From the NCBI RefSeq assembly GCF_001423125.1, contig NZ_LMNW01000012.1, positions 62,656-126,655 on the forward strand: a stretch of 64,000 bases of DNA, in the 5' to 3' direction. Positions within the stretch are counted from its first letter, which is position 1. Every line of letters begins with the position of its first letter. The notes beneath the pieces were generated by a model. The model ran no database searches and was not told where the DNA came from. It saw nothing but the letters and a program-made list of their open reading frames with translations. Made by a program: the position numbers and the translations under genes. Source of the DNA: Duganella sp. Leaf126. GTDB lineage: Bacteria; Pseudomonadota; Gammaproteobacteria; Burkholderiales; Burkholderiaceae_D. Below, in pieces: positions 29,558 to 32,781 of this stretch.

Positions 29558-29590
29558 TCGAAAAAAAATCGAAAAAAAATCGAAAAATAA
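29558..29590. repeat. phased A-tracts (three 11-base units)
   Basis: TCGAAAAAAAA occurs at 29558-29568 and 29569-29579, and a third unit starts at 29580 (TCGAAAAATAA). The 11-base period is close to one helical turn, so the A-tracts lie on one face and should bend the DNA. They end just before the first sigma-28-like motif. Confidence 0.75.
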
Positions 29591-29603
29591 TTCGGAAAAA
29601 CCC

Positions 29604-29630
29604 TCAAGTTACCCAAAACGCTGCCGTTAC
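29604..29630 (+). promoter_or_regulatory. sigma-28 (FliA)-like promoter motif, copy 1
   Basis: TCAAGTT (29604-29610), 12 bases, GCCGTTAC (29623-29630). The enterobacterial FliA consensus is TAAAGTTT, 11 bases, GCCGATAA, so spacing is exact and most positions agree. It points toward flhD, 419 bases away. Confidence 0.5.
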
Positions 29631-29732
29631 CAGGTTCAGGATACGGGGAAATGGGTCTGAAAAGGCGCAGGTCGCCGTCCCGGGTTGCAAAAAGGTAGTT
29701 AAAAATAATTGAAAATTTTTTCGTGGAAACCC

Positions 29733-29759
29733 TAAAGTTCCCGAAAATGCTGCCGTAAC
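29733..29759 (+). promoter_or_regulatory. sigma-28 (FliA)-like promoter motif, copy 2
   Basis: TAAAGTT (29733-29739), 12 bases, GCCGTAAC (29752-29759). It has the same spacing as copy 1 and lies 129 bases downstream. Flanks are also alike: AAATAATT upstream, AAACCCT just before, and CCAG..TCAG after. The two are therefore one duplicated promoter segment. Confidence 0.55.
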
Positions 29760-30049
29760 CAGCTCAGATGTAGCAAAAAAGCGTCGCTCGCAACAAGATT
29801 TTTGGGCCGGTTTCATCACCTTTCCAGGATTTTTTTGAAGACTGTCAGCCGCCAAATGCCTACGCCGCAAGGGCGTAGACCCCCGATCTGCATGTGTTTG
29901 TAAGACAAACACGGACAGGTCGCGTTCGCTATTTCCCGACGGAAAATACGGAGGTGCACCTCTACTCGTATTTTTGTTGCTCCCGCAGAATGTATCTCAC
30001 TGGAAACGTAATTCCGCAGTGAAACACACGAACGAACTGGGAGATGGAA

Positions 30050-30367
30050 ATGACCGCAAACGACATGATGGCTGAGATCCGCGATGCTAACCTGAGCTAC
30101 CTGATGCTCGCGCAGCAAATGATTCGCGCTGACAAAGTCACCGCGATCTTCCGCCTCGGCATCGCTGCCGAAATCGCCGAACTGATCGAAGGCATGAGCA
30201 ATGCCCAGATCCTCAAGCTCGCAGGCGGCAACATGATGCTGGCCCGTTTCCGCTTCGACGACAGCGCCATCCTGTCGATGCTGACCAACTATAATAAAGA
30301 CCGCAACCTGGCGCAGTCGCACGCCGCCATCCTGATGGCCGGCCAGGCCGTTGAAGAAATCGCGTAA
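30050..30367 (+). CDS. flhD: flagellar master regulator subunit FlhD
   Basis: A 105-residue FlhD: LSYLMLAQQMIRADKVTAIFRLGI and FRFDDSAILSMLTNY are typical. FlhD forms the FlhD4C2 complex that activates class II flagellar operons with sigma-70. The ATG at 30050 is chosen over the one at 30044 because GGGAG (30039-30043) would sit directly against the latter but six bases from the former. flhC follows 51 bases later in the same transcript. Confidence 0.95.
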   Translation: MTANDMMAEIRDANLSYLMLAQQMIRADKVTAIFRLGIAAEIAELIEGMSNAQILKLAGGNMMLARFRFDDSAILSMLTNYNKDRNLAQSHAAILMAGQAVEEIA

Positions 30368-30418: not shown

Positions 30419-30988
30419 ATGACCAAGAAAAGCGTAGTCTCCGAAGCCCAGGAAATCCAGCTGGCCATCGAACTGATCCAACTGGGCGCGCGCCTGCAGT
30501 TGCTCGAATCGGAAGTCTCGCTGTCGCGCGAGCGCCTGCTCAAGCTGTATAAAGAGTTGCGCGGCGTGTCGCCGCCGAAGGGTATGCTGCCGTTTTCGAC
30601 CGACTGGTTCCTGACCTGGCAGCCGAACATCCATAGCTCGCTGTTCATCAACATCCACCAGTTCCTGGTCACCCACGCTGGCGCTTCCGGCATCCAGGCC
30701 GTGATGAAGGCTTACCAGCTCTACCTCGAGCAGATGCCGCCGGCCCCGGGCGAAGAGCCGCTGCTGTCGCTGACCCGTGCCTGGACCCTGGTGCGCTTCT
30801 TCAGCAGCAAGATGCTGGAAACGGCCCACTGCGGCAAATGCCAGGGCAAGTTCGTGGTCAATGCCATGGATCTGCACGGCAGCTATGTCTGCGGCCTGTG
30901 CCACATGCCTTCGCGCGCCGGCAAGACCAAGGCGGCGCAAAAAGCACGCGACGCCGAACTGGTTGACGGCGACGCCCTGGCTGCGTGA
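30419..30988 (+). CDS. flhC: flagellar master regulator subunit FlhC
   Basis: A 189-residue FlhC. The zinc-binding four-cysteine cluster is present (C138, C141, C158, C161 in CGKC...CGLC) at the DNA-binding end. The central [12 protein letters not shown] segment is conserved in the family. It binds DNA with FlhD upstream of flagellar class II genes. The stop overlaps the next gene's GTG start (GTGA), coupling it to the methyltransferase. Confidence 0.95.
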
Positions 30989-31791
30989 CCCGCCCACCTT
31001 CCTCCATTCTCTCCCGCCTGGTCCGCACGCCTGCCGTGCGGGCCCTGCTGATCCAGTGCGGCGCTGCGCCGCTGACGCTGGTCCTGGTCTATCTGCTAGC
31101 CTCGCTGCGCCTGAGCTGGTTGTATCCGGTCAGCTATCTGACCGTGGCCGTGGTCCACGGGCTGGTCGCGGCTGCCATCACCTGGCGCGCCGGACTGGCG
31201 CCGTGGTGGCGCCTGATCGAGCTGCTGTTTCCGCTGGCCGTGCTGGCGGCGCTGGCGCTGCAGCTGCCGTCGTGGATCTTCCTGCTGGTCTTTCTCGTCC
31301 TGCTGGGCTGGTACTGGTCCACGTTCCGCACCCAGGTGCCGTATTTTCCGTCCAGCCCCGGCGTGTGGGATGCCGTGCGCCAGCAACTGCCCGAACCGCG
31401 CGCCGGCGGCGGGCGCCTGCGCGTGATCGATATCGGCAGCGGGCTGGGCGGCTTTGTGCTGTACCTGGCGCGCGTGCGGCCCGATGTCGACGTGGTCGGC
31501 ATCGAGCTGGCCCCGCTGCCGTGGCTGACCAGCTGGCTGCGCGCCCGGCTGTCCGGCAGCCGCGCGCAGTTCCTCCGCGGCGACTACGAGCAGCTCGATT
31601 TCGGCCAGTTCGACCTGGTCTTCGCGTATCTGTCGCCGGCCGCGATGGGGCAATTGTGGCGCAAGGCGCAGGCTGAAATGTGTCCTGGTAGCAATTTAAT
31701 AAGCTATGAATTTGACATCTGCGGCAAGCCGCCCGATCTCGTCATTCACGCCACAAACGACACGACTCCCCTCTATAAATGGTACTTTTAA
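30985..31791 (+). CDS. membrane-anchored SAM-dependent methyltransferase in the flhC-motA gap
   Basis: A 268-residue protein. The first 120 residues hold about four membrane helices ([35 protein letters not shown]). The rest is a class I methyltransferase: [16 protein letters not shown] (motif I, SAM binding), VVGIELAP (acidic ribose ligand), [13 protein letters not shown] (motif IV). The start is GTG overlapping the flhC stop by four bases. The family is known only as a conserved membrane methyltransferase. Its setting suggests a link to motility, but no target is evident. Confidence 0.8.
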
Positions 31792-31920
31792 GCATCATTT
31801 GGCGTTATTCGCTTGCCCGGGGGCACTGAGACAAGCTATTGTAGTTCTACACGTAAATTTTATGAAATCGGGCCGCCGCGAGTTAATGTTTTGGCCCTTT
31901 TTCTTTTTCGGGAGCCTTTC

Positions 31921-32781
31921 TTGTTTGTCATCATCGGTTATGTAGTCATCATGGTCGGCGTCTTTGGCGGTTACGCCATGGCGGGCGGGCACCTGGCTGC
32001 GCTGTTCCAGCCGCTCGAACTGGTGATGATCGGCGGCGGCGCATTCGGCGCTTTCATTGCCGGCAATAATGCCAAGACCATCAAGGCCACCATGGGCGCG
32101 CTGCCCAAGCTGTTAAAAGGGTCCAAGTTCAACAAGGACCTGTACATGGAGCTCATGTCGCTGATGTTCGACGTGCTGTCCAAGGTCCGCAAGGAAGGCC
32201 TGATGTCGATCGAAGGCGATATCGACAGCCCCGAACAGAGCCCCGTGTTCAGCAAGTATCCGAGCGTGCTGGCCGACCACCACGTGGTCGAATTCATCAC
32301 CGATTACCTGCGCCTGATGGTGTCCGGGAATATGGATGCGTTCCAGATCGAAAACCTGATGGACAACGAGATCGACACTCACCACCACGAGGGCGCCGCG
32401 CCGGCCCACGCCATCGCCCGTCTCGGCGACGGCATGCCGGCCTTCGGTATCGTGGCGGCGGTGATGGGCGTGGTCCACACGATGGAAAACGTCGGCCTGC
32501 CGCCGGCCGAACTGGGCATCCTGATCGCCCACGCGCTGGTCGGTACCTTCCTCGGTATTCTGCTGGCCTACGGTTTCGTGGCGCCGCTGGCCAGCCTGCA
32601 CGAACAGAAGCTGGAAGAAGAAGCCAAGATGTACCAGTGCGTGAAGGTCATCCTGCTGGCCAGCCTGAACGGTTACGCGCCGGCGCTGGCGGTGGAGTTC
32701 GGTCGCAAGGTGCTGTACTCGACCGAGCGTCCGACCTTCGGCGAGCTGGAAGACCACATCAAGAAATCGAAATCCAAGTAA
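31921..32781 (+). CDS. motA: flagellar stator protein MotA
   Basis: A 286-residue MotA with four membrane helices and the cytoplasmic loop between helices 2 and 3. GDGMPAFGIVAAVMGVV contains the conserved Pro of helix 3, and GTFLGILLAYGFVAPLA is helix 4. The start is TTG 31921 because GGGAG lies six bases upstream and the first residues (FVIIGYVV) match the usual MotA N-terminus; an open frame from 31813 only adds non-homologous residues. MotA5B2 makes the proton channel that drives the flagellar rotor. Confidence 0.93.
   Translation: MFVIIGYVVIMVGVFGGYAMAGGHLAALFQPLELVMIGGGAFGAFIAGNNAKTIKATMGALPKLLKGSKFNKDLYMELMSLMFDVLSKVRKEGLMSIEGDIDSPEQSPVFSKYPSVLADHHVVEFITDYLRLMVSGNMDAFQIENLMDNEIDTHHHEGAAPAHAIARLGDGMPAFGIVAAVMGVVHTMENVGLPPAELGILIAHALVGTFLGILLAYGFVAPLASLHEQKLEEEAKMYQCVKVILLASLNGYAPALAVEFGRKVLYSTERPTFGELEDHIKKSKSK

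What the first reader, a model, noticed from the sequence alone, without database searches (positions are those of the whole stretch)
29583..29766. Duplicated sigma-28-like promoters in front of the flagellar master operon flhDC
Two motifs with identical spacing (TCAAGTT-12-GCCGTTAC and TAAAGTT-12-GCCGTAAC) lie 129 bases apart with matching flanks, all pointing to flhD. In the textbook cascade sigma-28 acts below FlhDC, so FliA promoters upstream of flhDC would make a feedback loop from late flagellar genes to the master regulator. The motif match is seen in the sequence; the feedback is inference.
Basis: partly seen in the sequence, partly recalled or inferred. Interest (0 to 1): 0.72.

Follow-up and report, generated by a model that had tools for sequence, protein, structure and literature searches.

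The report
Flagellar sigma-factor promoters before master operon
In this bacterium and many of its relatives, the operon that switches on flagellum building carries conserved promoter sites for the sigma factor that it itself turns on later, which suggests a direct self-reinforcing loop in flagellar control.

Summary
Two 27-nt sites (TMAAGTT-12-GCCGWWAC) face flhD, ending 413 and 284 nt before it. The exact motif occurs three times in the 5.3 Mb genome: these two and one before flgK. A weight matrix from relatives' flgM promoters ranks them first and second in the window. Of the 80 closest named flhD loci (Massilia, Duganella, Janthinobacterium and kin), 78 carry two or three copies within 560 nt of flhD; none lies elsewhere in those loci. 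Of 100 unnamed loci of the same order, 42 carry it; control patterns hit 0 to 2. The sites persist in 13 loci where motA has its own, and in one where motA does not follow. Best reading: sigma-28 (FliA) promoters through which FliA re-activates flhDC directly. Promoter identity is strongly supported by comparison; transcription, FliA dependence and net feedback are untested. Many relatives lack the sites, including 11 of 11 of one genus. Known Salmonella loops act through FliZ, and E. coli shows no such site. No report of these promoters appeared in eight capped paper searches.

The parts
29604..29630 (+). distal sigma-28-type promoter (-35 TCAAGTT, 12-nt spacer, -10 GCCGTTAC)
   Evidence: exact match; flgM-derived matrix score 22.5, rank 2 of the window, both strands; two or more copies upstream of flhD in 78 of 80 named loci
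29733..29759 (+). proximal sigma-28-type promoter (-35 TAAAGTT, 12-nt spacer, -10 GCCGTAAC); start of transcription inferred a few bases downstream, near 29767
   Evidence: exact match; flgM-derived matrix score 24.1, rank 1; conserved in relatives
29760..30043 (+). long leader with conserved blocks between the proximal promoter and flhD; it may also hold the ordinary (housekeeping) flhDC promoter (inferred, not identified)
   Evidence: alignment with 79 relatives; no Rfam match at E up to 1; fold z-score -1.5, 7 of 200 shuffles fold as well
29898..29917 (.). conserved inverted-repeat element TTGTAAGACAAACACGGACA, probable operator (a NarL/FixJ-type regulator is a guess from memory)
   Evidence: alignment and comparison; only match in the own genome at up to 1 mismatch
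30044..30367 (+). flhD, master flagellar regulator subunit
   Evidence: PF05247 E = 8.5e-43
30419..30988 (+). flhC, master flagellar regulator subunit
   Evidence: PF05280 E = 1.7e-87
30985..31791 (+). methyltransferase-like gene between flhC and motA
   Evidence: PF13649 29.9 bits, cut-off 27; tblastn match in all 81 loci compared
31831..31860 (+). conserved block before motA (ACAAGCTATTGTAGTTCTACACGTAAATTT); at most a degraded sigma-28-like site in this genome
   Evidence: alignment of motA upstream regions
31921..32781 (+). motA, first gene of the downstream motor and chemotaxis cluster (start chosen from the sequence; named from reading the translation)
   Evidence: ORF list and tblastn comparison

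Best explanation
The two sites are tandem sigma-28 (FliA) promoters of flhDC. Another promoter, probably within the conserved block nearer flhD, starts FlhDC synthesis; FlhDC turns on the middle genes including fliA and flgM; when the hook is finished FlgM is exported, free FliA-polymerase uses the two upstream sites and makes more flhDC transcript, closing a direct positive loop gated by hook completion. Shown here: presence, orientation, spacing, sigma-28 identity by comparison, and conservation. From established flagellar knowledge: the FlhDC-FliA-FlgM order. Inferred: the other promoter, transcription from the sites, dependence on FliA, translation of the long transcript, and the net effect on FlhDC. 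FliT, whose gene also has a one-mismatch sigma-28 site here, could be the brake (it binds FlhDC in Salmonella, PMC5809477, passages).
For: Exact motif 3 times in 5.3 Mb, two here and one before flgK. Sites also precede flgM and a YjfB-type motility gene (no mismatch if the last base may be T), and fliD and fliT (1 mismatch) in the same genome (flgK and fliD named from reading the translations). Two FliA genes over the family cut-off, one 2.4 kb from flgM. flgM of 30 relatives (30 fetched of 67 genomes with a match): site in 30 of 30 at up to 2 mismatches, 27 at up to 1. A matrix from 28 of those flgM sites finds two or more sites in 600 nt upstream of flhD in 78 of 79 named loci, and any site in 0 of 395 shuffles. 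In the 80 named loci 163 copies lie within 560 nt upstream of flhD and none in the other 957 kb scanned, both strands counted. Wider order: 42 of 100 loci; reversed, complementary, reverse-complement and off-spacing controls 0 to 2 loci. E. coli K-12, 12 kb scanned the same way at up to 2 mismatches: sites at motA and tar, none upstream of flhD, in line with the FliA ChIP table rows that I saw (PMC4183435, passages). In 13 of 42 loci with the flhD site motA has its own site too, and L250 keeps three flhD sites although motA does not follow.
Against: No transcript or mutant data. The motifs end 284 and 413 nt before flhD, so the leader is long and may be poorly translated; in Salmonella the class 3 fliA transcript is inefficiently translated (PMC4173784, passage). 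Both fliC sites in this genome are degraded, and fliD, fliT and the better fliC site fall below the matrix threshold used for the flhD test (17.8, 18.8 and 18.9 against 19.07). 10 of 40 loci of the own family and 48 of 60 of other families lack the flhD site, and one genus of the own family (g27) has it in 0 of 11 loci, so it is not needed for flagella in general. Genome-wide one-mismatch hits are no more frequent than in the reversed control. The flgM sites for the matrix were picked with the motif pattern, so that test is not wholly independent. The 80 named loci are the closest of 536 relatives found.
Confidence: 0.7

Rival explanations
1. The sites are real sigma-28 promoters, but their main task is to transcribe the downstream motor and chemotaxis genes as one long late transcript; extra FlhDC is a by-product.
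For: A motA match lies in the stretch together with flhC in 79 of 81 loci compared. In this clade motA has no good site of its own: none at up to 3 mismatches in the window, and 2 or 3 mismatches in 5 of 79 loci, so the flhD sites could serve the whole cluster.
Against: 13 of 42 loci with flhD sites have a separate motA site within 260 nt. L250 keeps three flhD sites with no motA in the stretch fetched after flhD; a convergent gene that reads like a TonB receptor follows instead. Of 45 other-family loci with motA close behind flhD, 34 have no flhD site. A conserved block before motA suggests that it has its own control.
Confidence: 0.12
2. FliA transcribes from these sites, but the product is a leader RNA or small RNA, or a message that is translated poorly, so there is little feedback on FlhDC protein.
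For: Leader of about 280 nt with conserved blocks and predicted hairpins. Precedents: MotR, a sigma-28-dependent RNA from the E. coli motA leader (PMC10578931, passages), and the inefficiently translated class 3 fliA transcript of Salmonella (PMC4173784, passage).
Against: No Rfam match at E up to 1; the fold is not unusually stable (z = -1.5). The one terminator-like site in the leader is no more than chance predicts for the region (3 found, 2.9 expected). The conserved repeat reads, to me, more like a DNA operator than an RNA stem; covariation was not tested.
Confidence: 0.14
3. The motif belongs to another regulator or sigma factor, or is chance.
For: The -10 boxes (GCCGTTAC, GCCGTAAC) differ from E. 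coli GCCGATAA at two or three of the last four bases. The genome has a second FliA on C23 that could be the partner. Imperfect matches are common by chance.
Against: The same motif precedes flgM, flgK, fliD and fliT; chance is excluded by conservation and controls. G001 and G003 have a single FlgM match yet carry the flhD sites, so a second flagellar set is probably not required.
Confidence: 0.04

Closest known systems
Class III (sigma-28/FliA) promoters of E. coli, e.g. tar and motA
   Same: Same -35 box and spacing; the scan finds the E. coli tar site exactly and the motA site with one mismatch. Published site sequences such as TAAAGTTTCCCCCCTCCTTGCCGATAAC (PMC4183435, passages).
   Different: There they drive late genes; the table rows seen list no FliA site upstream of flhDC. 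Here they face the master operon itself, and the -10 ends differ.
FliA/FliZ positive loops on FlhDC in Salmonella (through YdiV or HilD)
   Same: Late regulator output feeds back positively on FlhDC (PMC5809477, PMC4173784, PMC3946378; passages).
   Different: Those loops are indirect, through FliZ; here a direct sigma-28 promoter is proposed. Whether FliZ exists in this genome was not tested.
Autogenous control of Salmonella flhD (Kutsukake 1997)
   Same: From memory, FliA has a positive effect on flhD expression there.
   Different: Only the title was seen, in reference lists; no direct sigma-28 promoter is known to me there.
B. subtilis sigD loop
   Different: The gene driven there is the sigma factor; here it is the activator one step above it.
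Azotobacter vinelandii flhDC
   Same: flhDC master operon followed by motAB with a FliA consensus between them (PMC2885672, passages).
   Different: flhDC there is listed with a putative sigma-70 promoter; [quoted passage not shown]

Membership tests
sigma-28 (FliA) promoter | -35 TMAAGTT and -10 GCCGNNAM with a 12-nt gap | tested here: met
   both sites exact; gaps of 10, 11, 13 or 14 give 0 or 1 hit upstream of flhD in the 100 loci (a 13-nt gap gives 7 hits downstream, against 29 for the 12-nt gap)
sigma-28 (FliA) promoter | same motif at undisputed FliA targets of the same genome or clade | tested here: met
   flgK and flgM without mismatch, fliD and fliT with 1 in the own genome; flgM in 30 of 30 relatives at up to 2 mismatches; but both fliC sites are degraded
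sigma-28 (FliA) promoter | a FliA protein is encoded | tested here: met
   TIGR02479 over cut-off at C30:303609 and C23:248611
sigma-28 (FliA) promoter | boxes conserved in position while the spacer is free | tested here: met
   the 90-91% box identity is inflated because copies were selected by their boxes, the 49-54% spacer identity is not
sigma-28 (FliA) promoter | transcription start mapped and lost in a fliA mutant | not testable with these tools
   needs RNA work
late (class III) operon only | gene has no other, FliA-independent promoter | tested here: inconclusive
   conserved blocks between the sites and flhD suggest another promoter, but none was identified; the sigma-70 scan gave only a 9-of-12 match overlapping the proximal site
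FliZ-type indirect feedback | fliZ in the fliA operon | not tested
   no search was made

The most novel reading that the evidence does not exclude
In a large part of the Burkholderiales the flagellar master operon is at once an early and a late operon: FliA, released by hook completion, directly re-fires flhDC through (often tandem) promoters, making an autocatalytic commitment switch that does not need FliZ and is gated by FlgM export.
Probability: 0.5. Interest if true: 0.75.

Novelty: new variant of a known kind. Interest (0 to 1): 0.64.

Why it matters
Textbook control has FlhDC only at the top of the cascade. Direct FliA promoters on flhDC would turn the cascade into a loop gated by hook assembly, which bears on flagellar number, cell-to-cell heterogeneity and memory in bacteria outside the enterics. 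The sites are short and easy to mutate, so the idea is directly testable in harmless soil and water strains such as Janthinobacterium or Duganella.

Tried and rejected
Rejected: chance; a recent duplication as the cause of the pair (tandem sites with diverged spacers across genera); a known Rfam leader element; an unusually stable leader fold. Weakened: promoters mainly for mot-che.

Led nowhere or against: the genome-wide one-mismatch search gave fewer hits than its reversed control; by my reading 5 of its 9 one-mismatch hits lie before a gene start (flgM, YjfB-type, FliT, DUF5610, a repeat protein) and 4 do not or are unclear. No sigma-28 site at up to 3 mismatches in the 400 nt before motA of the window. 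Paper searches on FliA and flhDC control, with Janthinobacterium, Burkholderia, Ralstonia, Herbaspirillum, Cupriavidus or Chromobacterium among the terms, gave no report of FliA promoters at flhDC in the listings; listings were capped (for example 25 of 337) and subscription papers are mostly not held.

Rows dropped: FlhD was matched in 165 of 195 genomes of the family search and 88 of 250 of the order search. 100 places were fetched for the main count (40 own family, 60 other families, a few per genus); order-level matches weaker than about 1e-30 and family places cut from the listing were not fetched. 58 short stretches (30 and 28) were scanned apart: by my count 27 have a site at up to 1 mismatch, with 0 of 11 in genus g27; they overlap the other sets and are not added to the totals. 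L105 is cut 289 nt upstream of flhD. In one search two flgM loci (L159, L163) were scanned at a wrong place and redone. An earlier count gave slightly wrong coordinates for the two conserved blocks; 29898-29917 and 31837-31847 are right.

Full report
What is there. The window carries flhD (30044-30367) and flhC (30419-30988), then a methyltransferase-like gene, motA, motB and a chemotaxis cluster (mot and che genes named from reading the translations). Upstream of flhD, on its strand, lie TCAAGTT-12-GCCGTTAC (29604-29630) and TAAAGTT-12-GCCGTAAC (29733-29759), 129 nt apart, with 413 and 284 nt between motif end and flhD start.

More than chance. With up to one mismatch the window has 3 matches (the third inside cheW) against a shuffle mean of 0.04; none of 100 shuffles reached 3. 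In the whole 5.31 Mb genome the exact pattern occurs 3 times, the reversed control 0 times: these two and one 26 nt before flgK. Allowing one mismatch genome-wide gives 12 hits against 18 in the reversed control, so imperfect hits need other support.

Sigma-28 identity. In the same genome the motif precedes flgK, flgM and a YjfB-type motility gene (no mismatch, the last base allowed to be T), and fliD, fliT and a DUF5610 gene (one mismatch) (flgK and fliD from reading, the others by Pfam). The two large fliC genes carry only degraded versions. Two FliA genes pass the family cut-off, one 2.4 kb from flgM and one in a second flagellar set on contig C23. The anti-sigma gene flgM, in the 30 relatives fetched of 67 with a match, has the motif in 30 of 30 at up to two mismatches, 27 at up to one. 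A matrix from 28 of those sites (themselves picked with the pattern) ranks the two window sites first and second over both strands of 64 kb: 24.1 and 22.5, next 16.2. The same pattern recovers the E. coli K-12 motA and tar promoters and finds nothing upstream of E. coli flhD at up to 2 mismatches.

Conservation. A search for flhD in named genomes found 536 relatives and returned the best 80, from Massilia, Duganella, Janthinobacterium, Rugamonas, Pseudoduganella and a few without a genus name. Of these 78 have two or three copies at up to one mismatch within 560 nt upstream of flhD (73 with two, 5 with three); L087 has one, and L105, with one, is cut. The 163 copies contrast with 0 in the remaining 957 kb scanned, both strands counted. 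Box positions are 90-91% identical between genomes (inflated, since copies were chosen by their boxes), spacers 49-54%; the two copies nearest flhD start 74-236 nt apart. With the flgM matrix at the third-lowest flgM score (19.07), 79 of 79 uncut loci have at least one site in 600 nt and 78 at least two, against 0 of 395 shuffles; at that threshold the own fliD, fliT and fliC sites would be missed.

Range. In 100 fetched loci 42 carry the motif in 1000 nt upstream of flhD: 30 of 40 in the own family (24 with two or more) and 12 of 60 in other families (f24 3 of 4, f25 2 of 4, f29 1 of 1, f34 3 of 3, f42 2 of 2, f48 1 of 2; 0 in the 44 loci of the remaining families). Reversed, reverse-complement and complement controls hit 1, 2 and 0 loci, off-spacing controls 0 or 1. 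In genus g27 of the own family 0 of 11 loci have it. In 8 loci of a more distant family (f58, enteric-like by its FlhD sequence; L308 is cut) the motif lies near the end of flhC, before motA, in 8 of 8, and upstream of flhD in 1 of 8, 797 nt away; in 6 other loci, of f49, f60, f68 and f71, it is upstream of flhD in 0.

What it does. The most likely mechanism is a direct loop: FlhDC makes FliA, FlgM export frees FliA, and FliA-polymerase fires flhDC again. Two facts argue that flhDC itself, and not only the downstream motor genes, is the target: 13 of the 42 loci have a separate motA site, and L250 keeps three flhD sites although motA does not follow. The rest is inference. A long leader could make the message weak or yield an RNA product; Salmonella's class 3 fliA message is a warning (PMC4173784, passage) and MotR a precedent (PMC10578931, passages).

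What is known. E. coli FliA ChIP data list (flhC)motAB, tar, fliA, fliC and others; the rows seen around flhDC show no peak before it (PMC4183435, passages). Salmonella has indirect FliZ loops (PMC5809477, PMC4173784, PMC3946378; passages). A. vinelandii flhDC was assigned a putative sigma-70 promoter (PMC2885672, passages). Kutsukake 1997 on autogenous flhD control was seen only as a reference. The passages seen of four further papers (PMC7060138, PMC7608950, PMC2262085, PMC2229837) mention no sigma-28 promoter at flhDC. Eight paper searches, with capped listings in a limited library, gave no such report.

Verdict.

Noticed in passing
window 29898-29917: A conserved inverted-repeat element about 150 nt upstream of flhD (forms such as TTGTAAGACAAAC.CCTAC and TTGTAGGA-N5-TCCTACAA) recurs in several families of the order and has a single match at up to 1 mismatch in the own genome; probably an operator of an unidentified regulator.
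   Followed up: partly
window 31837-31847: A strongly conserved block TATTGTAGTTC before motA in this clade, near the place where other genera carry a sigma-28 site; it may be a sigma-28 promoter that changed its regulator.
   Followed up: partly
G000 contig C23 (L046, L047, L303): A second flagellar set with its own FliA, FlgM-like protein and flagellin; the 12-nt-gap motif was not found at up to one mismatch in the stretches scanned (L137, L138, L303).
   Followed up: partly
window 30985-31791: A methyltransferase-like gene whose N-terminal part reads as membrane-bound sits between flhC and motA; a homologue is found in all 81 loci compared. Its role is unknown.
   Followed up: no
L141:8660 (C35:193660), L134:11018, L139:2359: Sigma-28-like sites with one mismatch precede a long repeat protein, a DUF5610 protein and a protein without Pfam match at E up to 0.01: possible new late flagellar genes.
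   Followed up: partly
L315, 797 nt upstream of flhD: One enteric-like genome has an exact sigma-28 motif far upstream of flhD, facing it, with no ORF of 50 codons or more starting between on that strand except one that runs into flhD.
   Followed up: partly
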